Positions 3,787 through 61,633 of a stretch of 64,000 bases of DNA are shown in pieces. The stretch covers positions 31,403-95,402 of IMG/VR virus record IMGVR_UViG_3300009788_000096, one strand, 5' to 3'. The translations under genes and the position numbers were made by a program. Source of the stretch: a virus. Below the pieces are notes generated by a model that searched no databases, had not been told where the DNA came from, and saw nothing but the letters and a program-made list of their open reading frames with translations. Each line of letters opens with the position of its first letter. Within the stretch, counting starts at the first letter, position 1.

Positions 3787-3796
3787 GGAAAAGATT

Positions 3797-6464: not shown

Positions 6465-7252
6465 CTTTAGCAACTGAATATCCTAAAGCAGAAATGGAGG
6501 CCATGCCGGAGATGTATGACTTCGAGTATGGAGGCACTCACGAAAGATTTACTTCTTGGTCACAGGATCTAACTTTCCTTGGATATACTTTCCATAATGC
6601 ACCAATTAAAAGAAGTGGTTTTTCTTTTGATAAAGAATTTACGAATGTTCGAGTAAACATAAACGCACCAGTAACCACTGGTTTCGAGCGATGGATTTCA
6701 AATGCTCCGTTGGAACCAACAGTGGTAACCATTTATCGCGGATTAAAATCTGATCTAACTGAATACACAATACTTTTTTCTGGGTGGATATTAAATGTTG
6801 GCTTTAAAGATCAGGTTGCATCTGCTACATGTGAGAGTAATTCGGGGATTTTAAATCACGTTGCCCCGCGAATCGTTTATCAGAGTTTCTGTAACCATGA
6901 GTTATTTGATTCATATTGCAAACTTGATGATTCTTTATATGAAGTCCCAGCAGTAGTAACAGTAAGCGGAGCGGTTTTATCAAGTGCTACGTTTGATAGT
7001 TTCGATGATGATTACTTCAAAATGGGAAGATGCAGATTTGGTCAAGATGAAAGATTAATAACAGATCATACGGGAGCGGACATAGCTCTTCATATGCCAT
7101 TTGATGCATCGCTCGTAAACGGCTCAAGTGTTATAGGTCTTCCGGGATGTGATGGAAGTCCTGACGTTTGTAAAGCATTTGATAATTTCGATGATAACTT
7201 TTTAGGCTTCGCTTATATACCGAGTAAGAATCCAGTAATTTGGGGTGTGTAA
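6461..7252 (+). CDS. Tail hub protein, DUF2163 / phage BR0599-like
   Basis: A 263-residue protein. The C-terminal block GCDGSPDVCKAF...NFDDNFLGFAYIP is the hallmark of the phage BR0599 C-terminal domain, where a Cys-Asp-x-x-x-x-x-Cys segment precedes an FGN...F.G..IP motif. The N-terminal part fits the DUF2163 beta domain. In gene transfer agents the equivalent protein is the megatron-proximal hub and carries an iron-sulfur-type Cys set. Here the conserved Cys residues near about 144-157 (FCNHELFDSYCKL) and 230-240 are present. It starts in an ATGA overlap with the Dit-like gene and ends in a TAATG overlap with the peptidase gene. Confidence 0.75.
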   Translation: MTLATEYPKAEMEAMPEMYDFEYGGTHERFTSWSQDLTFLGYTFHNAPIKRSGFSFDKEFTNVRVNINAPVTTGFERWISNAPLEPTVVTIYRGLKSDLTEYTILFSGWILNVGFKDQVASATCESNSGILNHVAPRIVYQSFCNHELFDSYCKLDDSLYEVPAVVTVSGAVLSSATFDSFDDDYFKMGRCRFGQDERLITDHTGADIALHMPFDASLVNGSSVIGLPGCDGSPDVCKAFDNFDDNFLGFAYIPSKNPVIWGV

Positions 7253-7755
7253 TGATTCCGGTTTTTGAAAATGAAAAACTGTGGGAGCATATGGAAAGTA
7301 TTCTTGCTTCGTGGCATAATACTCCTTACAAGCATATGGGGATGACGAAGCAAAGAGGTGCTGATTGCACAATGTTTTTGGCTTGCTGTTATAACGAAGC
7401 TGGAGTAATGGCAAATCTCTATCCGCCAGAATACTACCCGAGAGATTGGAACATTCATACCGGAGAAGAACTGGTGCGAAACAGTTTAATATACCATCTG
7501 CAAACAGGCTTGGCTAAAGGCTTTACTGCAGATATTTTTGAAAAGAAAGAAATTGAAAGAGAAGACTTTATTCGCGGCGATCTGCTTGGGTTCAAAACGC
7601 CAAGAAGTAAATGCACTAATCATACAGCCATGTGGTTGGGCAGAGATGATTGGATGGTGAATTGTATTCAAGGTGGGGGAGTTTGCGAATTAGAATGGAC
7701 ACGTGTTTGGAATAGACTTTTTACTACCGCATTTAGAATAATGGTTAAGGAGTAA
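7252..7755 (+). CDS. Tail-associated NlpC/P60 cysteine peptidase
   Basis: A 167-residue peptidase expected to cleave peptidoglycan stem peptides during DNA entry. The catalytic Cys is in GADCTMF near residue 38, and the catalytic His is in the CTNHTAMWLG segment near residue 123. Both match the NlpC/P60 fold used by gene transfer agent gp14 and lambda K-type proteins. The ATG at 7252 is chosen because it overlaps the upstream stop as TAATG; an in-frame start at 7240 is less likely. It is followed after three bases by the J-like tip gene, which completes the hub-peptidase-tip order. Confidence 0.85.
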   Translation: MIPVFENEKLWEHMESILASWHNTPYKHMGMTKQRGADCTMFLACCYNEAGVMANLYPPEYYPRDWNIHTGEELVRNSLIYHLQTGLAKGFTADIFEKKEIEREDFIRGDLLGFKTPRSKCTNHTAMWLGRDDWMVNCIQGGGVCELEWTRVWNRLFTTAFRIMVKE

Positions 7756-7757
7756 TT

Positions 7758-10052: not shown

Positions 10053-10056
10053 TTAA

Positions 10057-12327: not shown

Positions 12328-12335
12328 AGTATATA

Positions 12336-13610
12336 ATGAAAAAGTTTCCTGACATTCAAGCGAATTATCCGGGTCGAGCATTTGGCGTCGTTCAAACGAC
12401 TACCAGACCTCTGCTCGGTACTTATAGCTTTGACTTCGACGGCACGGACTTTATAAGAACTGTAGTCCATCCCGGAACCGATATCAATATTGCGATTTCA
12501 TTATGGATTCGTTTTGATACGGTTCCAACGGATGCAGTCAATAGACCTGTTGCTATAATGAGTAATAGTGATGGAACTAATTCTGGTCTTGGATTAGTCA
12601 AAGTCACCGGAGCCGCAAGAGTTCATATGGTTCGTTCTGCAAATGGAGCTGCCGGAGCTTATGAAGTAGACGATCAAGCAACTCCCGGTTCTGGCTTTGC
12701 GGTTTCTCCTAATACTTGGTATCACATGGTTGTGCAGAAGACAACTACGAATTTTGAACTTTGGGTCAATGCTGTTAAGGTTCTTGATCGAGCCGGCTCC
12801 TTTGGCAATGCCGATGCGACCGGATTTGATGGATTACTTCTTGGCTCTAAAACAGATAATTCAAATGGAATCGACGGGAAGATTGATCAAGTCAAAGTAT
12901 TTGATCTTGGTACCAGCGGCGGTTTAGCTCAAAGTCAAATTCGTGAGTTATATTTTGAAGGTGCAACAACGACAACTACTTCAACGACAACCACGACAAC
13001 CACGACAACTACTTCAACAACGATTGATCTTTGTCCTGGTGGATATTCCTCTGAATTATGTACTGATGGGGTAAACAGGGCATTTTGTCGTCAGACCTAT
13101 GGTGGTTATCAATGTTCCTGGGCTTTTGATGGTAACTATAATAACCCGTGGGTGGGTGGTACATTAGATCAGCAATACGTTGGTTACAGTTTCGTCGTTC
13201 CACAAATTGTCAATAAATTTTCTATTCTTGCATATAATGGTTCGACATTTCCGAGGACGCCGGATGCTTTCCAACTCCGTGCTTCTAATACTGCTGCCCC
13301 AACTAATTTAACAGAAGCTGAGGGCGGTACATTAATCCATCAAGTAAAGATGCCGGGAACGTTTGACTACCCAACCCATCATACTGTTGGTAACCTCGGG
13401 CATTGGAGTCAAGGCGAACTTAAATCTTGGGAATTCGATAATGGCATTGCATATAAACATTATTGGATGCTGTTCTGGGACAAAGATGAAAACGACTTTG
13501 GTCGGAGTGGGGATTATAATTTTGGTGACCTCAGTATGTATAGCTGCGGCCCACGTTTAACAACGACAACCACGACAACCACGACTTCAACGACAACTAC
13601 TTCATCATAA
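12336..13610 (+). CDS. Adhesin: LamG-like domain, poly-Thr linker, F5/8C-like domain, poly-Thr tail
   Basis: A 424-residue protein. Residues about 28-205 read as a concanavalin/LamG-type domain: it starts YSFDFDGTDFI, contains NTWYHMVVQK in the centre and IDGKIDQVKVFD near the end. A Thr linker follows (about 210-228). Residues about 230-410 repeat the F5/8C-like domain of the preceding adhesin, with shared motifs GGYxCSxAF, DQQYxGYxFxVPQIVNK and TFDYPTHHxVGxLGHW. The protein ends in a Thr/Ser tract. Both domain types commonly bind glycans, so a host-surface binding role is inferred. The RBS upstream of its ATG is weak. Confidence 0.78.
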   Translation: MKKFPDIQANYPGRAFGVVQTTTRPLLGTYSFDFDGTDFIRTVVHPGTDINIAISLWIRFDTVPTDAVNRPVAIMSNSDGTNSGLGLVKVTGAARVHMVRSANGAAGAYEVDDQATPGSGFAVSPNTWYHMVVQKTTTNFELWVNAVKVLDRAGSFGNADATGFDGLLLGSKTDNSNGIDGKIDQVKVFDLGTSGGLAQSQIRELYFEGATTTTTSTTTTTTTTTTSTTIDLCPGGYSSELCTDGVNRAFCRQTYGGYQCSWAFDGNYNNPWVGGTLDQQYVGYSFVVPQIVNKFSILAYNGSTFPRTPDAFQLRASNTAAPTNLTEAEGGTLIHQVKMPGTFDYPTHHTVGNLGHWSQGELKSWEFDNGIAYKHYWMLFWDKDENDFGRSGDYNFGDLSMYSCGPRLTTTTTTTTTSTTTTSS

Positions 13611-13618
13611 GGTGACTA

Positions 13619-13828
13619 ATGACTATACTATCACCCAGCGGTTTGGAAACGGACGATTATAGCCAAGCAAATTGGTGGGCAATCTATAACAGAAATGTGG
13701 AACTGTTGAATGCTGTTTTGATAAAGTTGCAGGGATTGGGAGACGTAAAGGTAGACAAGTTAAAAGATGACAGTTTTCTTTTCTGGGATGATGCTAATTC
13801 GAAATGGAAAGTGGGGATTTATCCATAA
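13619..13828 (+). CDS. Short tail fibre module protein
   Basis: A 69-residue protein that consists only of the short module found at the N terminus of the large adhesin (10057 gene): an aromatic start, NRNVELLNA, then DDSFLFWDDANSKW. AAGGTG precedes the ATG by a short spacer, and the stop overlaps the next start (TAATG). It may be an attachment subunit for an adhesin or a remnant left by module shuffling. Confidence 0.65.
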   Translation: MTILSPSGLETDDYSQANWWAIYNRNVELLNAVLIKLQGLGDVKVDKLKDDSFLFWDDANSKWKVGIYP

Positions 13829-14109
13829 TGGCAACCTATTATACATTGACTAACACTGGTTTGCGTTATTCTGATATTGGTTATTCTGCATGGAATGTCA
13901 ATGTCAATAACTATAACTGGAGCGCGCTCAATAATACTCTCTTGAAGTATTCGGCTTTGTTAGACGTTGATCCCACTGGCTTAGTTCAAGGCGACGTTTT
14001 AATATATAACTCATCTTCTGAAAAATGGGAAAGGAAAGCTTTAAACCCTGGCTATCACGTGATCAGTACAACGACAACTACGACTTCTACTACTACGACT
14101 TCGACATAA
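13828..14109 (+). CDS. Short tail fibre module protein with poly-Thr tail
   Basis: A 93-residue protein. It is a third copy of the short module (WNVNVNNYNWSALNNTLL ... GDVLIYNSSSEKWE), followed directly by a Thr/Ser tail of about 13 residues. The ATG at 13828 overlaps the upstream stop, so an upstream in-frame ATG at 13804 is not used. It shows the minimal form of the pattern seen in the large adhesins: a folded module plus a Thr tail. Confidence 0.65.
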   Translation: MATYYTLTNTGLRYSDIGYSAWNVNVNNYNWSALNNTLLKYSALLDVDPTGLVQGDVLIYNSSSEKWERKALNPGYHVISTTTTTTSTTTTST

Positions 14110-14117
14110 GGAGCGGC

Positions 14118-14651
14118 ATGGATATTAAATTCTTCGTAAAAGACTACTGGTCAATTGTTTTAAGTTGCATTGCATTAGTTACTTCCGTCATAATTGTTTG
14201 GAGATATAAGATTCCAGATATTGAGAAGCGACTGACAAAGGTTGAATTAACTTCACATTCGCAAGAAGTAACCCGACTTGACTTAACCGATCGAGTTTCA
14301 AAACATGAAATTTATCGTAAGGATGGAAGCTATATATATCAACAATCTGAGGGTTGCAAGAAGATGCAGGACACATGCCAGACAAAGATCTGCATGAAAA
14401 TTGATGGAGTAACTAAAATTATGAATAAACGAATGGTTTCAATCGAAGACAAGATGGAAGAAATGGATCTTTCAAGAGAAAGCACCAGAAGCGAATTTAA
14501 AGAAGTATTAGAAAAATTGCACAAGCAACAAGTTGAGATGGTAAGGGTCGCTACGCAAGTGAAGACATTGCTGGCAAATGGTCAAGCGCAGCAGACCGCA
14601 ATTATAGTTAGAGAAGTACTCAAAGAGATCAAACAGAACCGCTTGGTTTAG
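14118..14651 (+). CDS. Membrane-anchored coiled-coil protein
   Basis: A 177-residue protein. The ATG at 14118 follows AAGGAG by four bases. One transmembrane segment (about 8-28, WSIVLSCIALVTSVIIVW) is followed by a long, charged, helical, coiled-coil-prone region. It stands directly before a holin-like gene and a lipoprotein gene, which suggests a role in lysis or in the envelope, perhaps spanin-like. No spanin motif can be claimed. Confidence 0.6.
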   Translation: MDIKFFVKDYWSIVLSCIALVTSVIIVWRYKIPDIEKRLTKVELTSHSQEVTRLDLTDRVSKHEIYRKDGSYIYQQSEGCKKMQDTCQTKICMKIDGVTKIMNKRMVSIEDKMEEMDLSRESTRSEFKEVLEKLHKQQVEMVRVATQVKTLLANGQAQQTAIIVREVLKEIKQNRLV

Positions 14652-14668
14652 GCAAGGAGGTGTTATAT

Positions 14669-14947
14669 ATGGAAGAAGTTAGTTTTGGGGCTTATGCGGC
14701 TCCGGTGTTGCTAACAGTCATTTTAGGTATTGTCTACAAGTTCGTCGATGCCACTGGTAAATGGAAAGTGTTAATAGCAGTACTCTGCGGAATCGGTCTG
14801 GGAGTGCTTGCTATCGCTTACCAAGGGAAGGAATGGTCCATCGTGAACATTGTGGACTTCGCGATCTACGGATTGATGCTTGGTGCCAGTGCCATTGGTT
14901 TGCATCAAATGCAGAAGCAGGCAAGAAAGCCGAAGAAAAAAGTTTAA
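14669..14947 (+). CDS. Holin-like small membrane protein
   Basis: A 92-residue protein with three predicted membrane segments (about 6-26, 33-54 and 60-80) and a strongly basic C-terminal tail ending in RKPKKKV. Size, topology and tail charge fit a class I holin. AAGGAGG lies eight bases before the ATG at 14669, so the GTG at 14660 is not the start. The neighbours are a coiled-coil membrane protein and a lipoprotein. No endolysin gene is recognised next to it. Confidence 0.6.
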   Translation: MEEVSFGAYAAPVLLTVILGIVYKFVDATGKWKVLIAVLCGIGLGVLAIAYQGKEWSIVNIVDFAIYGLMLGASAIGLHQMQKQARKPKKKV

Positions 14948-14979
14948 TAAAAAATTCAATAAGAAGGAGGTGAAGTTAA

Positions 14980-15387
14980 ATGAGGAAAATGCGTAATTCT
15001 TTAATCTGCTTGGTTATCTTTTTTGCAATGGTAACGATGGCATGTCAAAGCGGTATCGGTGGGATGAGCGTAAAGCAGCAAGCGGCATGGACGAACAATG
15101 TCTATGCGAGGCAGTATGACTTGTATCTCGACCAGATTTTACTACCGTCGATTTCAGGAAGTGAACGTCAGACCTTGAAGGATAATCCAAGGCTAATCAC
15201 GCAAGACATGCTGCGTACAAACTTTAGCAAGAATGAAGCCGAAGTCCTTAAGGCGAAGAAGCAAGTCTTTACGGAGCTGCATCCGCTGCTGGTAACGTAT
15301 AACGAATATATCACCGGCGGCATGGCGGTACCGGCGAACCTTGAGTACCAGATTGTCTCGCTAATCAACCGGCTTCTGGCTGATTAG
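14980..15387 (+). CDS. Predicted lipoprotein
   Basis: A 135-residue protein with an N-terminal basic and hydrophobic leader and a lipobox-like VTMAC at about 18-22, which predicts lipid attachment at Cys22. The mature part is alpha-helical and contains LYLDQILLPSISGSER. AGGAGGTGA precedes the start. The position after the holin-like gene suggests an envelope role during lysis, for example an outer membrane spanin subunit, but the length and sequence do not prove it. Confidence 0.6.
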   Translation: MRKMRNSLICLVIFFAMVTMACQSGIGGMSVKQQAAWTNNVYARQYDLYLDQILLPSISGSERQTLKDNPRLITQDMLRTNFSKNEAEVLKAKKQVFTELHPLLVTYNEYITGGMAVPANLEYQIVSLINRLLAD

Positions 15388-15428
15388 CCTCAACCGAAAT
15401 TTAATTTCTGAAAAAGGAGCAATTTAAA

Positions 15429-15623
15429 ATGAGTCAAGAAGCAACTGTTAATATGGTTGCCGGTCTGGTCAGCTTGGCTGTGGAGTTCGCTGCGGCTTCC
15501 AATATCGCAAAGGAAGACGTTGATCGCATTTATGCGGAGTCCTATGAAAAAGTCAAAGCGAAAGATCCGGCGACTCATGCCCATCCAGATTTTGATGAGG
15601 CAACGGAAGGCGGTGGCGAATGA
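15429..15623 (+). CDS. Small acidic protein of unknown function
   Basis: A 64-residue protein with AAAGGAG upstream and an ATGA overlap with the next gene. The first 25 residues are hydrophobic and helical (MVAGLVSLAVEFAAA); the remainder is acidic. No family recognised. Confidence 0.6.
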   Translation: MSQEATVNMVAGLVSLAVEFAAASNIAKEDVDRIYAESYEKVKAKDPATHAHPDFDEATEGGGE

Positions 15624-16063
15624 GAAAGTTCAAATTTTTAATCTTCATTATGTTTATGGTGTTCGCCTTTTCATTTCCAGCTCTGGCCGATATTAATAAG
15701 GAATTTACTTTCGCTTGGGAACAGAATGTGGATGATCTTCCCCAAATGAAAGAGTGGAGAATGTATTGGTCGGATGCGGCAGGCGGTCCGTACACTGCGG
15801 TTCTTGATACGGACGGGAATCCAATTATTATTCCTTATGATCCTTTGGATCCCGACGGAATTTATGATTCGACACAAATAATGATAGTGCCCGGAACACC
15901 CGGAACAACTGTAACGAAGTACTTCGTCTTGACTGCGGTCGATCAGTCGGATAATGAATCCGATTATAGCGCCGAAGCAATTGACGATAGCACTGGAAAC
16001 GGTTGGGTTGAAATTAGAATTCCCTTGGGTAGACCTTTTAGCTTGCATATCATTATGCAATAA
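15620..16063 (+). CDS. Secreted fibronectin III-like protein
   Basis: A 147-residue protein with a classical signal peptide (MRKFKFLIFIMFMVFAFSFP, cleavage probably after ALA near residue 23). The rest is a single beta-sandwich-like domain with FTFAWEQN at the start and TKYFVLTAVDQSDNESDYS near the end, the usual fibronectin type III signature (YFV.TAVD..gNES..S). A phage protein exported by the host Sec pathway is unusual. It may act in the periplasm late in infection or in superinfection exclusion. Confidence 0.65.
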   Translation: MRKFKFLIFIMFMVFAFSFPALADINKEFTFAWEQNVDDLPQMKEWRMYWSDAAGGPYTAVLDTDGNPIIIPYDPLDPDGIYDSTQIMIVPGTPGTTVTKYFVLTAVDQSDNESDYSAEAIDDSTGNGWVEIRIPLGRPFSLHIIMQ

Positions 16064-16086
16064 CTAAAAGGGTAAGGTAAAACTTT

Positions 16087-16154
16087 GGCTCCCGTCCTTA
16101 GGTTCCTCCCTTTGCCGTTGAAGCATTTACTTGCCAATACGGGGACGGGAAGCC
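16087..16154 (+). ncRNA. Candidate structured leader (long inverted repeat)
   Basis: GGCTCCCGTCC (16087-16097) pairs with GGACGGGAAGCC (16143-16154), an 11-bp stem with one bulged A around a 45-base interior. It occupies most of the gap between the fibronectin-like gene and a Cys-rich gene. No U-run follows, so it is not a plain terminator. It may be a 5' leader element. Confidence 0.4.
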
Positions 16155-16205
16155 ATTTAACTCCGCATTTGGGCTGATGAAGAATTGGGCTGGAAGGAAT
16201 TTGAA

Positions 16206-16598
16206 ATGGCACTGTCATGGAAGCGGAATGGAGACTGCGTTCGCTGCGGCTGGTGTTGTGAGAGAACACTTTATTATGACTATGAAGTAGAGGTTGGTAA
16301 TAATGAAGCGATTATACTCTCACTTAAAAAATGCAATACAAACGACTCTTTTATTAAGAAGGTTAATACATGGATCGAAGCGCATGAAATGGTTTATGAA
16401 GATCGAAGAGTAGTCAAGATAGAGGTTGGTTGTGAATTTTTTAAGTGGAAGTATAATGACGGAATGAGGAAGGGATTCTGTACCGTTTATAAAGACAAAG
16501 AGAAAGGATGTCAATACGATAAAAGAAAATCTTTTCCAGAATCAGTCAATGATTTATCCGTAGAAAATACCTGCGGGTATACATTCGAAAAGAAGTAA
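16206..16598 (+). CDS. YkgJ-like Cys-cluster protein
   Basis: A 130-residue protein. CVRCGWCCE near the N terminus (about 11-19) matches the CxxCGxCC motif of the YkgJ-type Zn/Fe-chelating family. Further Cys residues occur at C-terminal positions (GCEFFKW, GFCTVY, GCQYD, NTCGY). The ATG at 16206 is chosen because GGAAGG lies eight bases upstream. Its place among adhesin genes is odd. It could be a metal-dependent modification enzyme. Confidence 0.6.
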   Translation: MALSWKRNGDCVRCGWCCERTLYYDYEVEVGNNEAIILSLKKCNTNDSFIKKVNTWIEAHEMVYEDRRVVKIEVGCEFFKWKYNDGMRKGFCTVYKDKEKGCQYDKRKSFPESVNDLSVENTCGYTFEKK

Positions 16599-16616
16599 TT
16601 CGAAAGGAATTGAGAA

Positions 16617-19367
16617 ATGACAATCCAAGAATTAGATATGGAAAATGGCGATTATGATTTGACTTCATTAATTACCGTGTTAACTCATATTCCCGATGCC
16701 GATAATGCTATGGAATGTCGAGCTCTCGTATTTTTTGGTGATGGCACTAAGAATCTTGATGGCACAGGTGGAAACTTCAATGTTGTCATAACTATTGGGA
16801 GTCAAACATTACAGCCCAGTCCGAAGGTTTATACCTTTGGAACGGAAGTACGATCTGCTCTCCGCACTGATCCATTTACTGTCCCCGCAAACGAACAAGT
16901 TATAGTCAAAGTTCTATCTCCAAATGGTGCTGATACAGATGTTGATGTCACAGCATATCTTCATAGTGACAATGTTGCAAACGACGTTTGGGATGAATTA
17001 CTTACAGGCGGAACTCATAATATTGCGACAAGCGCAGGACGCCGGCTCCGGACTTTACAAGATTTCGGTCTTTATGAAGGCGGAGCGGTATGGGTTGATA
17101 CGGTGAATGGTGTCGCCGGAACAGTCAATTTTGAAAACGGGGTAGTAAACAATCCTGTGGATAGCATTGCAGATGCGAAGACAATAGCAGACAGCATCGG
17201 GCTCAAAACAATCCATTTCCTTGCGGGATCGTCTGTAACTCTTGCAGAAGCATTTGACAGCTTTGTTTTTGAAGGAATGGCATATACGGTTGATTTAAAC
17301 GGACAGTCTGTTAATGGGACATGGTTTCAAAGAGCGACTATTGTTGGAAATGACGATGGTTCAAATACGATTCCGACACGTTATCTTCGTTGCATAATGG
17401 GAAACAATACTCTCGGGTTATCATACCTTGGAGATTGTGCGTTTGAAGGGGATTTGGTGTTGGCGCAAGAGGGCACCTATATTACAGATCGTTGTTTGTC
17501 AGCAGTTGCCGGAACAGAAACTCCGTCCATTGATTTTCAAAACGAGAACGAAAATAAATATTTGAACATGCGCCATTATTCTGGAGGGATTGAAATTAAA
17601 AACTTTGGTCATGGGACAGCAGATCACCATATGTCACTTGAGGGTGATGGTCAGCTTGTCTTTAATTCGAATTGTTCAAATGCCAATGCCGGTGATGAAC
17701 TCGCTATTCGTGGAAATTTTACTATCACTGATAATGTAGGTGGTGGATGGGCTGGCACATTATCTGATGATGCCAGATTTGACTCTGTGGAATTAGTGGA
17801 TAACGTTTGGGATGAATTACTTACGGGTGGAGCGCATAATATTCCGACTTCTGCGGGAAGAAGATTGCGCGAAATTGCAGGCACTGTTATTGCTTCTGAT
17901 ATTGCGCAAGGTCCGGGCACTGGAAACAATCAAATTCAATTGGCTGCCGCCGCTTCCGCAGTTGACGGCGCTTATGATCCAGCGATGGTTGTAATAATGT
18001 TAGGGACAGGAGCAGGACAAAGCCGATTAATTTATGAGTATGACGGCGCAACCAAAATTGCAACTGTAGATCGAAATTGGAAAGTAAATCCAAGTACCGA
18101 TAGTGAATATGTTCTCTTCGGCCATCCAGGAAGAGAACACGTTAACGAAGGACTTGCTCAAGCCGGATCAACGAGCAGCACGATTAAGTTAAATTCACTG
18201 GCAAGTGATCAAGATAATATTTACAATGGGCAGATGGTTTTTATCCGGTCAGGTACTGGAGAAGATCAGGTTGGGCTTGTGAAGTCATACGTTGGAGGTA
18301 CTAAAGTTGCAACGATGTGGGATAACTGGGGCGTAACACCTGACGGTACAAGCGGTTACGTAATGATGCCGATGGATATGCGACCAGAAACCATAGCAAG
18401 AGGAGTTTGGGATAGATTAGTTGCGAGTCATTTAACTTCTGGAAGCGCAGGTTTGGCTCTGATGCATACCACTTATGGTAGTGTAGTTCATATTGATACG
18501 GTTGGCGGCAGTGCAGGTACAACGTATCCAAAAGGCACAGTTGAAGATCCAGTGGATAATTATGCCGATGCAAAGATAATAGCGACAACGTATGGTTTAG
18601 AAGAGTTTCACTTGCTCAGCAATTTGACTCTTGGAGCTTCTGATAATGCAGATAATTTTAAATTTTCCGCTCCGACTGGTATTAATATTATATTAACAGT
18701 AACTTCAGGTTGCAGTACAATCAATACAACTTTTGAACGATTGGTTCTAACAGGCACATTAGATGGTGGTGTTTGGATAGAACGATGTAGTATTGCGGGA
18801 CTGAATGACATTCAAGGATTTGTACTTGAATGTATATTTTTGGCAAATAGTTCTCTTACTGGTCCTTCTTCTACAGTAATGTATAATTGTGGCACCGCAG
18901 TAGTAGCCCCACCGATTACATTGGGTTTAAACAGTTCACCACTAACTATGGCAGGTTGGAAAGGCGGACTAAAAATAGGAAGCAAAATTGGTTCTCAAAA
19001 TATTATAATAGATTTATTGTCCGGCACTTTGGAAATTGCTTCAACTTGCACTGCTGGAAAAATAATTGTCAAAGGCATTGGGCATATAACAGCAGATAAC
19101 TCAGGTGCTAACTGCATTATAGACACCACCGATTTAATAAAGGCAAGTCATATTGACTTCATGAAAAATATAGAAGGCGGACGTTGGAGAATTAATCATA
19201 TAACTCATCAAATGTTATTCTACAAAGAAGATAATGTTACGGAAGTTGCGCGGTTTAATTTATTTGATCATGCTGGAATCCCAGCGTCTGAAAACGTATA
19301 CGAAAGAGTTCGAGTGACAACCACAACAACTACAACAACCACTACTACTACCACAACATCAAGTTAG
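16617..19367 (+). CDS. Long repeat-containing tail fibre with poly-Thr tail
   Basis: A 916-residue protein. The N-terminal 120 residues form a beta domain. Two related repeat units follow: NVWDELLTGGxHNIxTSAGRRLR occurs at about 121-144 and 397-420, and a beta-helix-like unit with VxxDTVxGxAGT...PVDxxADAKxIA occurs at about 160-210 and 625-670. The long beta-solenoid-like stretches suggest an elongated trimeric fibre. The C terminus carries 14 Thr followed by SerSer, the longest pure Thr run in the window. Probably a side or tail fibre. Confidence 0.75.
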   Translation: MTIQELDMENGDYDLTSLITVLTHIPDADNAMECRALVFFGDGTKNLDGTGGNFNVVITIGSQTLQPSPKVYTFGTEVRSALRTDPFTVPANEQVIVKVLSPNGADTDVDVTAYLHSDNVANDVWDELLTGGTHNIATSAGRRLRTLQDFGLYEGGAVWVDTVNGVAGTVNFENGVVNNPVDSIADAKTIADSIGLKTIHFLAGSSVTLAEAFDSFVFEGMAYTVDLNGQSVNGTWFQRATIVGNDDGSNTIPTRYLRCIMGNNTLGLSYLGDCAFEGDLVLAQEGTYITDRCLSAVAGTETPSIDFQNENENKYLNMRHYSGGIEIKNFGHGTADHHMSLEGDGQLVFNSNCSNANAGDELAIRGNFTITDNVGGGWAGTLSDDARFDSVELVDNVWDELLTGGAHNIPTSAGRRLREIAGTVIASDIAQGPGTGNNQIQLAAAASAVDGAYDPAMVVIMLGTGAGQSRLIYEYDGATKIATVDRNWKVNPSTDSEYVLFGHPGREHVNEGLAQAGSTSSTIKLNSLASDQDNIYNGQMVFIRSGTGEDQVGLVKSYVGGTKVATMWDNWGVTPDGTSGYVMMPMDMRPETIARGVWDRLVASHLTSGSAGLALMHTTYGSVVHIDTVGGSAGTTYPKGTVEDPVDNYADAKIIATTYGLEEFHLLSNLTLGASDNADNFKFSAPTGINIILTVTSGCSTINTTFERLVLTGTLDGGVWIERCSIAGLNDIQGFVLECIFLANSSLTGPSSTVMYNCGTAVVAPPITLGLNSSPLTMAGWKGGLKIGSKIGSQNIIIDLLSGTLEIASTCTAGKIIVKGIGHITADNSGANCIIDTTDLIKASHIDFMKNIEGGRWRINHITHQMLFYKEDNVTEVARFNLFDHAGIPASENVYERVRVTTTTTTTTTTTTTTSS

Positions 19368-19372
19368 GAGAT

Positions 19373-20002
19373 ATGATGGCAGTTAAAAGACAAAGTTTAA
19401 AAGGAATTGGAAAGAAGAAGAAAGCTCGCAAAGCGGCAGCTGCACAAGGGCAAATGACGCGATGGTTGAAGCCGACTGGGAATTGGAGCATGGCATGGGA
19501 TGTATCAATTACTACAGGCACAGATATTACTCCCAGCGAAAGATTAAAGGAAAAATACACTTGGTGGGATGATAAGTATAGCATCGTTGCGCAGGAAGTC
19601 GCTGCTCCTCCGGGATTCGGGATTTCCTTTAAGTTTAAACCTGTTCCCAAAACACATGACTTTTATGTTGACTTCGTTGGTCATTATACTGGTACGCATT
19701 CCGGCCCACATTTCCCGCGTGTTGAAATTTGGGATTATAATACGACTGCATGGGTTGATACAGGTATAGAACTGGATCTCACCATGAGCGAAGATCAAAG
19801 TCTTACTTCTAACCTTATAGATAAAACCGGAGATTGGTGGGAAGCAGTAACCGATAATGTCTGGTTACAACTTGCGCATCCTAATGTTGCTGGTAATGCA
19901 GCTCATGAGATTCATGTAACCAAAATGGGCTTGAGGCAAAAAATAGTAATAACAACCACAACCACTACAACGACTACGACAACCACAACGACATCGAGTT
20001 AA
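19373..20002 (+). CDS. Virion-associated protein with basic N terminus and poly-Thr tail
   Basis: A 209-residue protein. A very basic N terminus (about 4-25, KKKKARK) is followed by a beta-sandwich-like domain with many Trp and Tyr residues, then a C-terminal tract of about 14 Thr ending in SerSer. This tail is almost identical to that of the preceding fibre. GGAG stands just before a double ATG; the first is used. Confidence 0.65.
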   Translation: MMAVKRQSLKGIGKKKKARKAAAAQGQMTRWLKPTGNWSMAWDVSITTGTDITPSERLKEKYTWWDDKYSIVAQEVAAPPGFGISFKFKPVPKTHDFYVDFVGHYTGTHSGPHFPRVEIWDYNTTAWVDTGIELDLTMSEDQSLTSNLIDKTGDWWEAVTDNVWLQLAHPNVAGNAAHEIHVTKMGLRQKIVITTTTTTTTTTTTTTSS

Positions 20003-26541: not shown

Positions 26542-26942
26542 AAAAAGAAACGGATTATAAAAGCTACCTTGACTCTCTTGAAGAAAAAGTAATTATCCCT
26601 GGAATCGTTTCTGGTGAACTGTGCAAGAAAAGAAAAGTTCCCGCAAGAAAAGGCAAGCTGTATAAAAGCGATTTCGGAAAATTTGTAGGCGAGTCATTCG
26701 ATTGTAAGGATGCAGCTGCCATAGATTATTACGGGTACTTTAAAAAATCGAGTGGCTTCAAGCCTCTAATTACTTCGTACGAAGACATTGAAGTCAAGTC
26801 AATAAAGATAAAGGTTTGCCATTTCGCTTCTATCAAAATCGAATACGTATCAAAGATGGCACCGGAGTTGATGGAGGAGTTCTTTAACTTCAAAGGCTAT
26901 TTACTTCTCTTGAGGGGATTTAAGAGCGGGAACTTTGACTAA
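26538..26942 (+). CDS. Protein of unknown function at end of cassette
   Basis: A 134-residue protein starting in an ATGA overlap with the GT-A gene; the in-frame ATG at 26514 is rejected. Basic N-terminal half, mixed C-terminal half. Last gene of the plus-strand block; a bidirectional hairpin follows. No family recognised. Confidence 0.6.
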   Translation: MKKETDYKSYLDSLEEKVIIPGIVSGELCKKRKVPARKGKLYKSDFGKFVGESFDCKDAAAIDYYGYFKKSSGFKPLITSYEDIEVKSIKIKVCHFASIKIEYVSKMAPELMEEFFNFKGYLLLLRGFKSGNFD

Positions 26943-26950
26943 GTGGATCC

Positions 26951-26983
26951 AAGAGTAGCGGTGGTTAAGCCTCCGCTGCTCTT
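26951..26983. terminator. Bidirectional terminator between convergent blocks
   Basis: AAGAGTAGCGGTGG (26951-26964), loop TTAAG, CCTCCGCTGCTCTT (26970-26983): a 14-position stem with one U-U mismatch and one G-U wobble. It lies exactly where plus- and minus-strand genes meet and contains the stop codon of the minus-strand gene. No long U-run on either side. Confidence 0.65.
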
Positions 26984-27147
26984 TGAAATACTTCTTCAAG
27001 CTTGTCATACTGTTTTTCTGTTAAGTAATTATTATCTTCATAAAACGTTTCCACATTGGCCACGAAGTTAGTCTCCCAATCGTCCAATGGATCATGTTCC
27101 ATGAACTGGAAGATATGTTCGATTCGGCTATGTTTTCTTATCTTCAT
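26965..27147 (-). CDS. Small acidic protein
   Basis: A 60-residue protein, last gene of the minus-strand block. Its ATG overlaps the upstream stop, and its RBS (AAAAGGAG) is coded inside the upstream gene as the KRR of a terminal IKRRSK. Asp/Glu-rich with LTEKQYDKLEEVF near the C terminus. Function unknown. Confidence 0.6.
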   Translation of the reverse strand: MKIRKHSRIEHIFQFMEHDPLDDWETNFVANVETFYEDNNYLTEKQYDKLEEVFQRAAEA

Positions 27148-38260: not shown

Positions 38261-39532
38261 TTATAGATCGAGTTCGTCAATGACCTCTTCGTGCAAATCA
38301 TCAAGATCATCTTTATCGAAATCGTCCAAGTCAATATCGAGGTCTTCGTCTTTAATGACTCTTTTCAATTTCTTGTAATTCATCTTTTTGATTTGCTTCT
38401 TGGTGAACTTAGGTTCATCGTCATCATCATCATCGTCATCATCGTCATCGTCATCGTCATCGTCATCATCGTCATCGTCGTCATCGTCGTCATCATCATT
38501 GTCGGCATCGTCATCATCGTCATCATCGTCATCGTCATCATCGTCATCGTCGTCGGCATCTTCCAGTGCCTCCGCGATTTTTTGTTTGACGTCGTCGACA
38601 TCGTCCTTTTTCTTGATTTTGACTTCAAGATCATTTTCGTCGATGAACTCTTTTAGCTCATCCATATCTTCGCAGTCATCGAGCTGTTCAATCAGATCAT
38701 CGTCGTCATCATCGTCATCATCATCACGATCACGAGCTTTTTTCGACTTCTTGTCGTATCCGTAGTATGCCTTGTAGATTTCATCGTAACTGGGATGGAT
38801 GACGATTCCATCAAGAATTTGAGCTTCATCCAGAATGTCTTGATCGATTTCATAATCCCGATCATCGAAAGCATGACCTTCGAAACTGGGATAGTCATTT
38901 TTCGATTTGGCCGGCTCAATTTTAAAGGTGACGGATTTCCCGTTTTTAATATCCACGAAGTTGACGTCCTTCTTCTTCTTTCCCTTCCTTGAAGGACGCT
39001 GGCTTAGTGCCACCAACTTCTTTTCCATATAATGCCAGCTAACATCCCAGACCTGTACACCTTTATCCTTTTCGCCACGATCATAGCAAAGGACATTATA
39101 AAGGTTGCGACGTTTCGGCCAGAGTTTGTTGGCCTTTTTATCTCTGCCCTTTTCAAACAGTGCCTGTTGATGTTCGCAGACAGGACACTTTTTGTCATAA
39201 GTTTTTTCCGGGCAAAGCATAACCTGATTCTGGGCGCCGAGGTTTGTATGGCAATAGAACTCGAAAGTGTATTGCTCTTCGCCCCGAGCGTCGGGATCCG
39301 GGTCTTTCTTGCCTGCGAAGTAAGGAACAATATCTACGATGTGATCACCATCTTTAGGTCTCCAAATCTGGAGATCAAGACTTTCGTCGATAATGGTTTT
39401 AAATCTTCCTTTACTTCTCTCTTGACTCTTTTTAATCCGTTTTTGGAGAGCGCCACTCTTCATCTTTCTGCGTTTGCGGCTACTCTTCAAACTCTTTTTC
39501 TTTTTCTTTTTGGACTTTTTCGACCTCGCCAT
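38261..39532 (-). CDS. T4 gp32-like single-stranded DNA-binding protein with poly-Asp tail
   Basis: A 423-residue protein. The N terminus is extremely basic (about 1-45). The OB-fold region contains the gp32-like zinc segment, HTNLGAQNQVMLCP...KKCPVCEH at about 95-122. The C-terminal third is acidic. An Asp block lies near 270-280, and a much longer run of Asp, interrupted by only a few Ala/Asn, near 330-380. A short charged helical end follows. Acidic tails of SSBs recruit partners and compete with DNA, but this one is far longer than in gp32. AAGGAGG precedes the ATG. Expected to coat ssDNA and load recombinase and polymerase. Confidence 0.75.
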   Translation of the reverse strand: MARSKKSKKKKKKSLKSSRKRRKMKSGALQKRIKKSQERSKGRFKTIIDESLDLQIWRPKDGDHIVDIVPYFAGKKDPDPDARGEEQYTFEFYCHTNLGAQNQVMLCPEKTYDKKCPVCEHQQALFEKGRDKKANKLWPKRRNLYNVLCYDRGEKDKGVQVWDVSWHYMEKKLVALSQRPSRKGKKKKDVNFVDIKNGKSVTFKIEPAKSKNDYPSFEGHAFDDRDYEIDQDILDEAQILDGIVIHPSYDEIYKAYYGYDKKSKKARDRDDDDDDDDDDLIEQLDDCEDMDELKEFIDENDLEVKIKKKDDVDDVKQKIAEALEDADDDDDDDDDDDDDDDDADNDDDDDDDDDDDDDDDDDDDDDDDDDDDEPKFTKKQIKKMNYKKLKRVIKDEDLDIDLDDFDKDDLDDLHEEVIDELDL

Positions 39533-56680: not shown

Positions 56681-57577
56681 TTAATCGTCATCATCTTCTT
56701 CGGCAACAAAGGATATTTCGCCAGTGGCTTCCTCGCCGGTAAACGCGATGTTGATGGGGACGGCCTTGCTGACTTTACGAATCAAAGTTCGGAGGGACAG
56801 GTTGACCATTTTGTCCCACTTTTTGCCCTTTTTCTTTCCGATCTTTTTGGCAATGTCTTTCACCGTGGCTTCGCCGTCGCCGGCTTCAACGATGTCGTAG
56901 ATGTCAGCAGAGACAGAACCAGAGCGGATGCCGGAAGGATATTTTTTCTTTTCATCCTTGGCCTTTTTGGCCTTGGCTTTTTTGGCTTTGGCCTTTTTCG
57001 CTTTGGCCTTTTTCGCTTTGGCCTTTTTCTTCGCCGATGCCGAATCATCTTCATCGTCGTCATCATCGTCGTCATCATCATCGTCGTCATCATCGTCGTC
57101 ATCATCATCGTCATCGTCGTCATCGTCGTCGTCGTCTTCGTCGTCGTCGTCCGAATCATCGTCATCATCGTCATCATCCGAATCATCGTCGTCGTCTTCG
57201 TCGTCGTCGTCGGCATCATCATCATCGTCGTCGTCCTCATCGTCCTTCTTCTTCTTCTTGGACTTTTTGGACTTCTTCGACTTTTTGGCGACCTTTTTCT
57301 TTTTCTTTTTCTTCTTCTTTTTATCGTCGCCGTCGTCGATGAGTGACTCGTAGAAGTCAACGGTTGCTTCCGGCACGTTGTCGATGTTGCCGTCGTCGTC
57401 GATCTCTTCGATGGCCTGGATAAAGTCTTCCTGAATGGCCTTGACTTTGCCCTTGGTTTCGATGTCGTCTTCCGTTAAGTCCAGTTTATTCACTGCCTTG
57501 CAGTGTTTCACCAGAACTTTTTTGTCGACAACAACTTTGCTCTTACCAGCTTTCTTTTTCGACTTCTTTTTCGCCAT
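56681..57577 (-). CDS. Lys/Asp low-complexity protein with C-terminal helix-turn-helix-like domain
   Basis: A 298-residue protein. A basic start (MAKKKSKKK) is followed by an acidic helical region. A Lys run near 86-97 and KSKKSKKSKK repeats follow. Then comes an acidic block of about 65 residues, nearly all Asp with few Glu/Ser. Five KAKKA repeats follow at about 183-207. The C-terminal 85 residues (DIYDIVEAGDGEATVKDIAKKIGKKKGKKWDKMVNLSLRTLIRK) look like a winged helix. AGGAGG precedes the ATG. It may be a DNA- or polymerase-associated scaffold. The function is unknown. Confidence 0.6.
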   Translation of the reverse strand: MAKKKSKKKAGKSKVVVDKKVLVKHCKAVNKLDLTEDDIETKGKVKAIQEDFIQAIEEIDDDGNIDNVPEATVDFYESLIDDGDDKKKKKKKKKKVAKKSKKSKKSKKKKKDDEDDDDDDDADDDDEDDDDDSDDDDDDDDSDDDDEDDDDDDDDDDDDDDDDDDDDDDDDDDDDEDDSASAKKKAKAKKAKAKKAKAKKAKAKKAKDEKKKYPSGIRSGSVSADIYDIVEAGDGEATVKDIAKKIGKKKGKKWDKMVNLSLRTLIRKVSKAVPINIAFTGEEATGEISFVAEEDDDD

Positions 57578-57698: not shown

Positions 57699-59369
57699 TT
57701 ATTTAATATCTTCATCATCAATACTTTCATGTTTTTCGAGTTGATAACATCGTGGCCAATCAAGACCGTATGGCCACCATGCCGCGTCCAGCACGGGTTC
57801 AGCAGTCGCTAAACGTTGAGTTACCATAACTTGACGCATGGGAGCGAAATCAGCATGTCTATGATATAATGTGGAAAGTCGTATTAAGCCGAGATTCATT
57901 TCTGCTTCGGTCTGATTAATAGCGATTCTTACATCTAAATGACTGTCTTTTGTTTTACTCTCACTCGTGGACATTTGATCTAACTTATATGATGTTCTAC
58001 CGCCTTTGGTGGCTTGATCGGCATTTAGCACAAGACAATCTAACTCACCGGCTAAACGACTGGCATTACGCCATTTGCGGTCAATGTCGATGCGAGTTTG
58101 TAAGTCACCTCTTTCTTCAAGTAAAATATCAAGATAATCGAAAATAATCATATCGGGCATCCATTTATACTTTTCGATATATCTCATTATAAAGGCATAC
58201 GAATCTTCAAACGAAACGCTGCCACGCGGAAAACACTTTACTCGTAAGTTTTTTATCTTTAGGAATCTGTTTTCTTTTAATGATCGTTTGACACTCGTTC
58301 TGGTGATCTTGCGAAACCGCTCGTTCTCAAACCAGATCGCAGGAACCCACTTCTTGTCCAATCTCCGGTACTTCATCCGTTTCATGTTATTCCTACATTC
58401 AGTGCAGGGAGTCCACTTCTTCGCATACTTGTTATATGATACAGTATCCGGCTGCGCCTGTTGAACTTTCCCTTTTGCAATTAAAGGCTTTTTGTTAAGG
58501 GGTTTTCTAACAGCACAGGTTCCACACTGGTTGTTTCCACAATCGAAAATAGGATAGATAACATTTTTAGGAGCATTTGGATTTCGGGTTTGACTTATAC
58601 CTCTGTATAAACGATTATCAACAAGCTTTCTATTTAGCTCGTAGTTAAGCCATAAAACTTTTTTCTTATGAATCATTGCTGTTTGGATAGCTATTTCTTC
58701 AAGTACATGTGACTTGCCACTTTTCTCAACACCTGAGATAGCAACAAGCCAAGTCCGTTCAAGGGGTTGAACCAAGGCATTTAATTCAGGTTGGATAAAG
58801 CGAAACACTTCTTCGTTTTTCTTGCGCTTTACAAAATGTTCCTTAACTTCTTCAACGGTGAAGGGTTTAAAAACTCCCATTTCCTCTTCTTCAACTTCTG
58901 TATGCATTCTCTCATGCTTGCTAATTAAATCTTCTGCTTTCTCTGGATCATCTTCATCGAGAGAATCTTGTGCTTTATCCACAAGTATCTGGATTTCACG
59001 CTGTCGTATGAAGTTAAGTATGATTTCATTTTTTATGTATTCAGTTGAAAAAGAGGCATCTTCCTGATAAGCGGAAAACTCTTCTGCGAGGCGATCTAAG
59101 TATTCTTCAATTAAGTCAGCAGACTTTCCAAGCATTTTCTTTTTCTTTTGGAAAATCCTTTGGATAGTCCACTTAGGAGCTTTTTGATAATCAGCATAAT
59201 ATTTGATAAGCCAGCGGACGACCGGACGATAAGAGTCCGCGAAATGTCTTGTTTTAAGTTTGCCTTTTTTATATTGGGAATAACCGTATGATAGGATATC
59301 GGTATCCATTATCATATAGCCCAATACCAAATACTCGTCACCAACTTTAACGCTTTCCCGCTTAATCAT
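57699..59369 (-). CDS. DnaB-like replicative helicase with zinc insertion
   Basis: A 556-residue RecA-fold helicase. Walker A is SGVEKSGKS near 212-220, and Walker B IIFDYLDIL near 409-417. LDCLVLNADQATKGG carries the C-terminal Gln region, and a typical N-terminal helical domain precedes (about 40-160). Between Walker A and Walker B lies an insert (about 270-330) with CGNNQCGTC and CTECRNN, probably a zinc site not present in DnaB of bacteria. The GGAG RBS is upstream. Expected to unwind the fork with the primase at 60704. Confidence 0.75.
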   Translation of the reverse strand: MIKRESVKVGDEYLVLGYMIMDTDILSYGYSQYKKGKLKTRHFADSYRPVVRWLIKYYADYQKAPKWTIQRIFQKKKKMLGKSADLIEEYLDRLAEEFSAYQEDASFSTEYIKNEIILNFIRQREIQILVDKAQDSLDEDDPEKAEDLISKHERMHTEVEEEEMGVFKPFTVEEVKEHFVKRKKNEEVFRFIQPELNALVQPLERTWLVAISGVEKSGKSHVLEEIAIQTAMIHKKKVLWLNYELNRKLVDNRLYRGISQTRNPNAPKNVIYPIFDCGNNQCGTCAVRKPLNKKPLIAKGKVQQAQPDTVSYNKYAKKWTPCTECRNNMKRMKYRRLDKKWVPAIWFENERFRKITRTSVKRSLKENRFLKIKNLRVKCFPRGSVSFEDSYAFIMRYIEKYKWMPDMIIFDYLDILLEERGDLQTRIDIDRKWRNASRLAGELDCLVLNADQATKGGRTSYKLDQMSTSESKTKDSHLDVRIAINQTEAEMNLGLIRLSTLYHRHADFAPMRQVMVTQRLATAEPVLDAAWWPYGLDWPRCYQLEKHESIDDEDIK

Positions 59370-59391: not shown

Positions 59392-60279
59392 CTAAATTTT
59401 GGTTATGTAATTTGTACTTGATATGACATTTTCTTTTACTAACTGATTTGGAATGTCGTGATTCCAAAATTTTTTATTCCCAATGTATGAAGCACTCGGA
59501 TTAAATCTTTTGTTATTTTTCCAATCTTTCAAAATGTCCTCTACCGTGCCCATCAAAGGAGCCGGTCCACAATACTTCTCATTTTTCTTACAAAGCTTAA
59601 GTAAATTTTTAGTTGCTTCACGGAATGCTTGCATATCCCTGCCATCCGGCTCTTCGCCAGAATATTGGATCCAAGCTTCCTGAAATAGTTTTGTTAATTT
59701 CGGGTCTTTGTCTACAAGTGAAAAATTCCTGCGAACCCAATCTTCGCCAGCAACAAATTCTTTAAACCAGCTATCAACCTTGGCTTTGGCAACAAAGGCA
59801 TCGTGCTTTTTATCCCTGTCCGTATATTCCAAAAAAGATGAAAGTGAAATATTGTTTGAACGGAAATGATAGTAATGTCGAAACCATTTAGAAGTAAAGA
59901 CTTCATGTCCTAATTCTATCGCTGCTCGAATTTCAAGCGATTTAAAACCTTCACTCATAAATCTTTCAAGTTTGGATAAAGCTGAAATAACTGTTTTGGA
60001 TTTGACTTGTTTGTGAGTTGTAAATGGATGGCCGAAAGTATTCCACTTGGCAAGTAGTTTTTTTGAAAAATCAGAAAAACCGCTTTCCTTAATTGGAGTA
60101 TGACTTCTTGAAGAGCGAATGGTTTCCTTGTGGCGATAAAGTGTTATTCGCCGGGATATTGTAAGAGAAGCATTTGGTAAGTATGTATCAACCTCAATTT
60201 GAGATAATGTTTTTAATTGTTTTGGTGAATAAACTTTTTTGACTTCAACGTGTTGATAATACGATTTGCTTCTTTTCAT
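59392..60279 (-). CDS. Replication-region protein of unknown function
   Basis: A 295-residue, mainly helical protein. The ATG at 60279 follows GGAG by six bases; an in-frame TTG at 60291 is rejected. It contains FSKKLLAKWNTFGHPFTTHKQ and FVAGEDWVRRNFSLV. Lying between the helicase and primase genes, it could be a helicase loader or primosomal protein. No family recognised. Confidence 0.55.
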   Translation of the reverse strand: MKRSKSYYQHVEVKKVYSPKQLKTLSQIEVDTYLPNASLTISRRITLYRHKETIRSSRSHTPIKESGFSDFSKKLLAKWNTFGHPFTTHKQVKSKTVISALSKLERFMSEGFKSLEIRAAIELGHEVFTSKWFRHYYHFRSNNISLSSFLEYTDRDKKHDAFVAKAKVDSWFKEFVAGEDWVRRNFSLVDKDPKLTKLFQEAWIQYSGEEPDGRDMQAFREATKNLLKLCKKNEKYCGPAPLMGTVEDILKDWKNNKRFNPSASYIGNKKFWNHDIPNQLVKENVISSTNYITKI

Positions 60280-60703
60280 TCCAATCTCCAAGATTAAAGA
60301 AAAAGTTTTTCAGACTTTTCAAAAAGAATATATTCTATTATCTCTTATCTCTATACTTCGTAAGATATATCGTCCCGTTTTCAAAGGCTAAAACGGTACG
60401 CTTTATACATCCGTTGGTTGAGGAGTAAAGATAAAAATAAAAGGCTTTAGATAGAGTCAAAAAAAACCCTTGTGAACTTAGGGAAGACCAACCGACGATT
60501 GCCAGTTGATCTTCAATTGGAGGCCAGGATTACTTCGGGGGAAATCCTGTTTGAAGACTCTCGCCTTCCCTAAATTCACAAAGGTAAAATGTTTTACTTC
60601 CCGAAGTAACGCCTTCAATTTTAAAAACAAAGCTGAAGTATAGTTTAAATAAATCTAAAAAACAAGCTTTTTTATCTTTAATAAAAACAGGGGTTTATAT
60701 AAA
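60280..60703 (-). other. 400-bp intergenic region with structured RNA and possible origin
   Basis: No ORF is seen. It is A+T-rich with several inverted repeats, CCGTTTT/AAAACGG (about 60375-60397) among them, and the long nested hairpin described separately. It lies between primase and the 295-residue protein gene, where a replication origin or structured regulator could sit. No clear promoter or tandem-iteron pattern is visible. Confidence 0.4.
60468..60584 (-). ncRNA. Nested long-hairpin RNA candidate with possible pseudoknot
   Basis: CCTTGTGAACTTAGGGAAG (60468-60486) pairs with 60565-60584 through 18 pairs with one bulge and one mismatch, which is G-U on the minus strand. Inside, TCTTCAA (60510-60516) pairs with TTGAAGA (60551-60557), and CAGGATT (60525-60531) with AATCCTG (60543-60549). 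The hairpin loop ACTTCGGG (60532-60539) is exactly complementary to CCCGAAGT (60600-60607) outside the outer stem, so a long pseudoknot is possible. The mismatch pattern favours a minus-strand transcript. Confidence 0.55.
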
Positions 60704-61633
60704 TCACAAGCAGAACCTAAGATCCCTTTTTATCGAATTGACCTGTGACAAAGTCAATTCACCGGGATCGTCTTTTGAAGTCAAAGTCAAAACTTCGACC
60801 CGTTTAACTACTGGTGCCACTACGCGCGCAAACTTCTTTGCTGCCCTTCGCCCTGCTTTGTCAGGCTTGCCATCTTTAAAACTATCAAACATTATATATA
60901 GTTTTCTAATATTCTTTTTCATAATAAGCCGAATTTGTTCTTCCGTGTATTCAATACCAGTCAACCCCATAGCACCATCTCCCATTTTCCAAACATCCAC
61001 AGGACCCTCTAATGCAAAGGCATCTAAGCCAGAAGTAACACTATCATAATTGTAGATAAGTTGTTTGGGAGATATTGGTGCTTCCTCAGGATCGCCGTGG
61101 AGATACGGAGGGTCTTGTTCTCCTGTAATGTCACGCGAAGAAAAACTTATTAAACGGCCACCCTGATAAAACGGGATTATAATTCGAAATTTATATTTTC
61201 CAATTGTATGGACAGATCTTAACTTGTATTTTTGGATTAATTTTTTTGGATTGAAACCTCGCTTTTTTAAATACTTTATATGGAGCTTTGTAAAATTTTT
61301 AGATGACTCTTGAGGCAGGTGGACTTTTAACGTAGATCGCCTGATGAGGGTTTTTTCTACCGTTAACGGAGGTTCGCCCAGGTCTGCCTCAAGAGCCAAA
61401 CTTAATTTTTTGGCATCACGAAAAGAGCATTGAAGTAATTCAATAATGAGAGTAACTATCGGGTGGTATCCGCACTTCCAGCAATTGACTCTCAAATCAT
61501 TATACCTTATTCCATGGTGATTTGAATAGTCTTCGCAAAAAGGACACTGGACATTTATCCAACCCTTACTTACATTTTTTCCAGAAGTCCAATACTCGAT
61601 TCCATACTCGTCGAAAAATTCTTTCAATTCCAT
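60704..61633 (-). CDS. DnaG-type primase
   Basis: A 309-residue primase. CPFCEDYSNHHG near 29-40 and CWKCGYHP near 51-58 form the zinc site. FRIIIPFYQGGRLISFSSRDI near 156-176 is the RNAP-basic region, and the TOPRIM motif follows as FALEGPVDVWKMG and LYIMFDSFKDG. Smaller than bacterial DnaG, without a helicase-binding domain. It overlaps the 61566 gene and supplies primers to the DnaE fork. Confidence 0.85.
   Translation of the reverse strand: MELKEFFDEYGIEYWTSGKNVSKGWINVQCPFCEDYSNHHGIRYNDLRVNCWKCGYHPIVTLIIELLQCSFRDAKKLSLALEADLGEPPLTVEKTLIRRSTLKVHLPQESSKNFTKLHIKYLKKRGFNPKKLIQKYKLRSVHTIGKYKFRIIIPFYQGGRLISFSSRDITGEQDPPYLHGDPEEAPISPKQLIYNYDSVTSGLDAFALEGPVDVWKMGDGAMGLTGIEYTEEQIRLIMKKNIRKLYIMFDSFKDGKPDKAGRRAAKKFARVVAPVVKRVEVLTLTSKDDPGELTLSQVNSIKRDLRFCL

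What the first reader, a model, noticed from the sequence alone, without database searches (positions are those of the whole stretch)
60468..60609. Nested long-hairpin RNA with a possible pseudoknot near the primase gene
Three nested stems plus an eight-base loop complement 50 bases away are visible in a region with no ORF. The mismatch-to-wobble pattern supports a minus-strand RNA. A known class is not recognised. It may be a replication primer or origin element, or a leader regulator of the 295-residue protein.
Basis: seen in the sequence. Interest (0 to 1): 0.7.

Follow-up and report, generated by a model that had tools for sequence, protein, structure and literature searches.

The report
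Pseudoknot leader RNA before phage initiators
Upstream of the gene that probably starts DNA replication, this phage and many uncultivated relatives carry an RNA that folds into a long stem tied into a knot and ending in a stop signal for transcription; its letters differ completely between phages but the pairing is kept, so it looks like an undescribed switch controlling phage replication.

Summary
The minus strand of 60459-60610 is the most structured 150-nt stretch of the 64-kb window. All 44 bp form on the minus strand; every departure from a perfect inverted repeat is G-U there. The stem ends in eight U, and a 5' strand pairs with an apical loop (8-11 bp). Following primase and DnaE I found about 20 unrelated uncultivated phages with the same order: promoter-like box, strand a, long stem arm b (10-38 nt), apical a', arm b', U-rich tail, then usually the gene of a replication initiator (O-like/DnaD-like). 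Sequences differ between phages, yet cognate a/a' fit far better than non-cognate ones. In a subfamily 26 of 41 pairs show compensatory changes (0 of 500 shuffles). Rfam has no match. Best reading: an undescribed family of initiator-leader RNAs, a giant H-type pseudoknot with a terminator, probably acting by transcription attenuation and perhaps also as a released sRNA. That it is a conserved RNA structure is well supported; expression, mechanism and the initiator identity of the window's 299-aa protein are inferred.

The parts
60660..60665 (-). -35-like box TTGTTT (3 of 6), 17 nt before the -10
   Evidence: weak on its own (p 0.375), better boxes at the same place in relatives
60637..60642 (-). 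-10-like box TATACT (5 of 6); transcription start inferred near 60630
   Evidence: and sequence
60600..60610 (-). strand a of the pseudoknot, GUUACUUCGGG; can instead form hairpin UUACUU-CGGG-AAGUAA
60563..60585 (-). arm b, 5' side of the long stem (17 bp P1 plus the alternative 6-nt extension GGAAGGC used by P2)
60489..60562 (-). apical region with P3 hairpin (60549-60525) and most of P4 (60514-60483)
60529..60539 (-). strand a', CCCGAAGUAAU, in the P3 loop; pairs with strand a
60466..60488 (-). arm b', 3' side of the long stem
60459..60466 (-). U8 tract directly after the stem: intrinsic-terminator-like 3' end
   Evidence: sequence
59392..60291 (-). 299-aa protein (295 aa from ATG at 60279), replication initiator by position; 175 nt after the stem
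   Evidence: homologs at the same place before DnaB in L130-L134 and L148; no Pfam, PHROG or PDB fold match
57699..59369 (-). DnaB-like replicative helicase, next gene
   Evidence: phrog_19 E 3e-30
60704..61633 (-). DNA primase, gene before the RNA
   Evidence: phrog_47 E 3e-35

Best explanation
This is the untranslated leader of the phage replication-initiation operon: an undescribed family of RNA with the order a - b - a' - b' - U-tract, a very large H-type pseudoknot whose second stem (b:b') is an intrinsic terminator. Shown: conserved architecture, cognate complementarity, compensatory change, and a usual place before initiator genes. Inferred: transcription starts near 60630; while the apical part is made, a pairs with a' and closes b inside a loop; when b' emerges it must pair with the enclosed b to complete the terminator. 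The outcome decides between a released RNA of roughly 170 nt (stop at U8) and read-through into initiator and DnaB. The a:a' pairing, or whatever frees or blocks strand a, would so set dose and timing of the replication initiator.
For: Extreme minus-strand structure with wobble-only departures. A model of the window RNA alone hits the gap behind the primase in L207, L130 and L132 (E 3e-4, 1e-3, 0.03). Long stems ending at a U-tract on the primase-coding strand of relatives have a leader:apical helix of -15 kcal or better in 12 of 14 cases; controls 2 of 8 (one of the two is the window's own RNA) and 3 of 11. Cognate a:a' mean -18.5 against non-cognate -11.4, beyond 20,000 permutations. Subfamily B: 26 of 41 pairs change on both sides, 0 of 500 shuffles, slid controls at most 10; the pseudoknot column, not modelled, is U-A, C-G, A-U or U-G. 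The next gene is an initiator-type protein in most members, within 60 nt of the U-tract in many, leaving little room for a separate promoter; in L177 the initiator, not the primase, is adjacent. Before b' is made, a:a' is the predicted state in most members (window 0.98).
Against: No transcript data. The window's promoter box is weak and its initiator starts 175 nt behind the stem, so a second promoter is possible there. A few members do not precede an initiator (L182, L243, L160, L146). Several close relatives lack the element (L133 has a plain hairpin; L134-L137). a and b do not share bases, so no classical antiterminator is seen. The 299-aa protein has no detectable initiator domain.
Confidence: 0.5

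Rival explanations
1. An autonomous phage small RNA gene with its own promoter and terminator that acts in trans on phage or host RNA; the place before the initiator is only a frequent location.
For: Promoter-like boxes and U-tract bound a unit of about 150-250 nt; in L182, L243, L160 and L146 the next gene is not an initiator.
Against: In most members the start codon of an initiator-type gene lies 14-60 nt behind the U-tract, which points to read-through in cis; no conserved exposed seed or target was found.
Confidence: 0.25
2. An origin element: the transcript primes or opens the replication origin (R-loop or primer) next to initiator, DnaB and primase.
For: Location in the replication module beside initiator, helicase and primase.
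Against: No iterons or repeated motif; the GC-skew maximum is near 27 kb, not here; U-tract and covariation are explained without it.
Confidence: 0.12
3. Only a terminator between primase and the next operon, with a stem that grew long.
For: U-tract directly after the stem; L133 has a simple long hairpin with U-tract at the same place.
Against: A terminator needs neither a 27-102-nt apical region nor a conserved leader:apical helix with covariation.
Confidence: 0.1

Closest known systems
pT181 repC leader attenuator (plasmid; described in PMC5435934)
   Same: Structured RNA in the 5' untranslated region of a replication initiator with an intrinsic terminator before the start codon.
   Different: There an antisense RNA shifts between antiterminator and terminator; here no antiterminator sharing bases with the terminator is seen, the terminator is the second stem of a pseudoknot, and an antisense RNA was not looked for.
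IncB/IncI plasmid rep leader pseudoknot (PK-repBA type; from general knowledge)
   Same: A leader pseudoknot before a plasmid replication gene.
   Different: That pseudoknot is short and activates translation; here a 20-38-bp stem ends in a U-tract. No Rfam match.
IsrK of prophage Gifsy-1 (PMC4825925)
   Same: One promoter gives a terminated short RNA and a read-through mRNA; possible model for dual cis/trans use.
   Different: No pseudoknot of this kind, other target genes, no Rfam match here.
Known phage structured RNAs in Rfam (c4, GOLLD, ROOL, packaging RNA and others)
   Same: Structured non-coding RNA in phage genomes.
   Different: None of 4227 Rfam families reaches its gathering score at these RNAs.

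Membership tests
H-type pseudoknot | order a-b-a'-b' with both helices able to form | tested here: met
   Window and about 17 further members; a:a' 5-14 bp, b:b' 20-38 nt arms. Simultaneous formation in one molecule not tested experimentally; linker lengths allow it
Intrinsic terminator | stable stem followed directly by a U-tract | tested here: met
   U8 at 60466-60459; U-rich tails in the relatives. Subfamily B tails are pyrimidine-rich rather than pure U
Initiator leader attenuator (pT181 type) | lies in the 5' untranslated region of a replication initiator | tested here: met
   Initiator-type gene next in most members; for the window itself by synteny only
Initiator leader attenuator (pT181 type) | alternative antiterminator pairing that excludes the terminator | tested here: inconclusive
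   a:a' forms before b' is made but shares no bases with b
Initiator leader attenuator (pT181 type) | countertranscribed antisense RNA | not tested
   No transcript data; opposite-strand promoters were not analysed
Rfam 15 families | covariance-model score above gathering threshold | tested here: not met
Riboswitch or ribozyme | conserved primary-sequence core across members | tested here: not met
   No shared motif among unrelated members beyond AT-rich 6-mers and stem ends; no nucleotide similarity except within subfamily B, which keeps a CUGAUC loop and GGAC/GUCC

The most novel reading that the evidence does not exclude
A self-recognising replication-control RNA of phages: strand a of the released RNA pairs in trans with a' of leaders on other genomes of the same type, so that each phage type has a private code, like plasmid incompatibility groups, limiting over-initiation or superinfection. 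This would explain why the letters diverge completely while the pairing is kept.
Probability: 0.15. Interest if true: 0.88.

Novelty: new variant of a known kind. Interest (0 to 1): 0.7.

Why it matters
Leader attenuation of replication initiators is known from plasmids; I found no described counterpart in tailed phages. This family ties a large pseudoknot to a terminator before the initiator in a broad uncultivated phage group, and it diverges so fast that sequence search does not see it, while a search for architecture plus cognate pairing does. It gives a testable handle on how such phages time replication, and possibly on incompatibility between phages.

Tried and rejected
The near-identical contig IMGVR_UViG_3300024265_000100 gave no variation. 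Single-protein scans with primase, 299-aa protein and DnaB found only that contig. blastn against phages and plasmids: no homolog (one 41-nt chance-like hit). A larger ornate RNA over the whole 420-nt gap: flanks not significant. Iterons: TACTTCG occurs throughout the window. The genome search with the RNA model found nothing even in records holding known members, because of its first-look filter, so those empty answers were not used. Five named phage records with related initiators show closely packed genes before the initiator, without a comparable gap. AlphaFold/Foldseek of the 299-aa protein: no match. Genome contigs: four MAG contigs, of which L211 (Sulfuricurvum MAG) carries the RNA. Riboswitch, ribozyme, 6S-like, packaging-RNA and retron readings were dropped for lack of a conserved core, Rfam match or partner gene.

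Full report
Observation. The minus strand of 60468-60609 folds at -56.7 kcal/mol (z -6.84, none of 200 shuffles); the plus strand does not stand out (z -1.94). Scanning the whole window in 150-nt pieces on both strands, 60451-60600 minus is the strongest outlier. The 44 pairs contain six G-U pairs and no mismatch on the minus strand; on the plus strand those six would be A-C, so selection seems to act on a minus-strand RNA rather than on a DNA palindrome. The outer stem runs straight into U8 at 60466-60459, which makes it terminator-like. Rfam gives nothing.

Setting. The window lies in a 95-kb viral record. On the minus strand the order is UvsW-like helicase, primase, the RNA, a 299-aa protein without family, DnaB-like helicase, sliding clamp, clamp loader. 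The only near copy found in IMG/VR is identical over the region, so covariation needed distant relatives.

Relatives. A DnaE alignment found phages with polymerases up to 57% identical; their primases gave an alignment that returned 80 loci, and two more rounds added 80 each, partly the same contigs. The covariance model built from the window RNA alone (R1) hits the coding strand of the gap behind the primase in L207 (E 3e-4), L130 (1.3e-3) and L132 (0.027), with the U-rich tail aligned. E-values of this model are rough by the tool's own statement.

Common anatomy. These gaps show the same order each time: promoter-like box, strand a, arm b, apical region with a', arm b', U-rich tail, next gene. 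A descriptor that asks only for a long stem ending at a U-tract was run over 1.7 Mb, with the opposite strand and reversed sequences as controls. It finds 14 stems of score 45 or more on the primase-coding strand of the relatives, and 12 of them also have a leader:apical helix of -15 kcal or better. On the opposite strand it is 2 of 8, one of the two being the window's own RNA, which is a minus-strand member; in reversed sequences it is 3 of 11. Helix energies come from a simple nearest-neighbour helper with approximate G-U terms. The leader of each member fits its own apical region (mean -18.5) far better than those of other members (-11.4; permutation mean -11.8, sd 0.66, minimum of 20,000 is -14.8). 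A few members (L146, L273, L206) were added after their pseudoknot was seen, which inflates this somewhat; L126 counted as zero in that test because its arms were mis-set.

Base-pair covariation. Subfamily B (L246, L242, L250, L126) can be aligned: 11 of 42 pairs change on both sides, 0 of 500 shuffles. A model of its nested pairs (R2, pseudoknot not modelled) found L297, L298 and L299, and more weakly L270 and L291. On the resulting alignment 26 of 41 pairs have compensatory changes (0 of 500 shuffles; slid controls at most 10) and 91.6% of cells pair, against at most 53% when slid; this alignment is fitted to the nested structure. In the pseudoknot, which was not modelled, columns 10 and 105 are U-A, C-G, A-U or U-G, with one U-U mismatch in L297. 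This base-level test is on subfamily B; for the window's own group the evidence is architecture, the R1 hits and cognate pairing, because the sequences cannot be aligned.

What it stands before. The next gene, directly or after one small ORF, matches replication-initiation, O-like or DnaD-like families in L126, L127, L139, L142, L151, L177, L207, L211, L228, L246, L250, L273 and L298. The 299-aa family of the window occurs at the same place in L130-L134 and L148; L148 has an extra N-terminal stretch that reads like a winged helix (by eye only). In L177 the primase is about 2 kb away while the initiator follows the RNA, so the partner is the initiator. Exceptions are L182 (SLOG-type protein), L243 (T5orf172-type), L160, L146 and L206. 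The U-tract lies 7-60 nt before the next start codon in most members, 175 nt in the window. Promoter boxes are good in L142, L148, L182 and L130 (p at most 0.025) and weak in the window (0.375).

Mechanism. Before b' is transcribed, a:a' is the predicted state in most members (window 0.98); the complete nested fold prefers b:b'. Because b is closed in a loop by a:a', a long b:b' stem can be completed only by threading or by opening a:a'. I therefore propose kinetic control of a terminator in the initiator leader, giving either a short RNA or read-through. This step is inference. Linkers are long enough to allow both helices at once, so a stable pseudoknot is equally possible.

Comparison. pT181 shows that a plasmid initiator can be controlled by a leader terminator (PMC5435934), and IsrK that a prophage locus can give both a terminated sRNA and a read-through mRNA (PMC4825925). 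The membership table says what is met and what is not. Paper searches found no description of a pseudoknotted terminator leader before phage initiators, within an open-access library only.

Limits. The element is not universal among relatives: L133 has a plain hairpin, L134-L137 lack it. Nothing here shows transcription. The host is unknown, so promoter and terminator rules are assumed to be of the usual bacterial type.

Noticed in passing
L132:1246-1311: Type II hammerhead ribozyme at gathering score in a relative of this phage.
   Followed up: no
window 56681-57577 and 38261-39532: Two proteins with very long Asp tracts in the replication region, one between the DnaB-like helicase and the clamp.
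   Followed up: no
window 3728-20002: Several tail-side proteins end in long poly-Thr tracts.
   Followed up: no
L010:5312-7786: DnaB-like gene whose two homologous parts are separated by about 1.4 kb near the Walker A motif, in one open frame; intein-like.
   Followed up: no
L246, L250, L126, L127, L298 (subfamily B leaders): An extra leader hairpin keeps loop CUGAUC(C/A) while its stem covaries; perhaps a protein-binding site.
   Followed up: partly
L133:4555-4615: At the syntenic place a plain long AT-rich hairpin with U-tract, without apical region; possibly a degenerate or ancestral form.
   Followed up: no
L123:2455-2726: The gap behind the primase of the close relative G011 is strongly structured on both strands (z about -3.4) but does not fit the descriptor.
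   Followed up: partly
window 351-500 and 26851-27000, plus strand: The next most structured windows of the scan.
   Followed up: no
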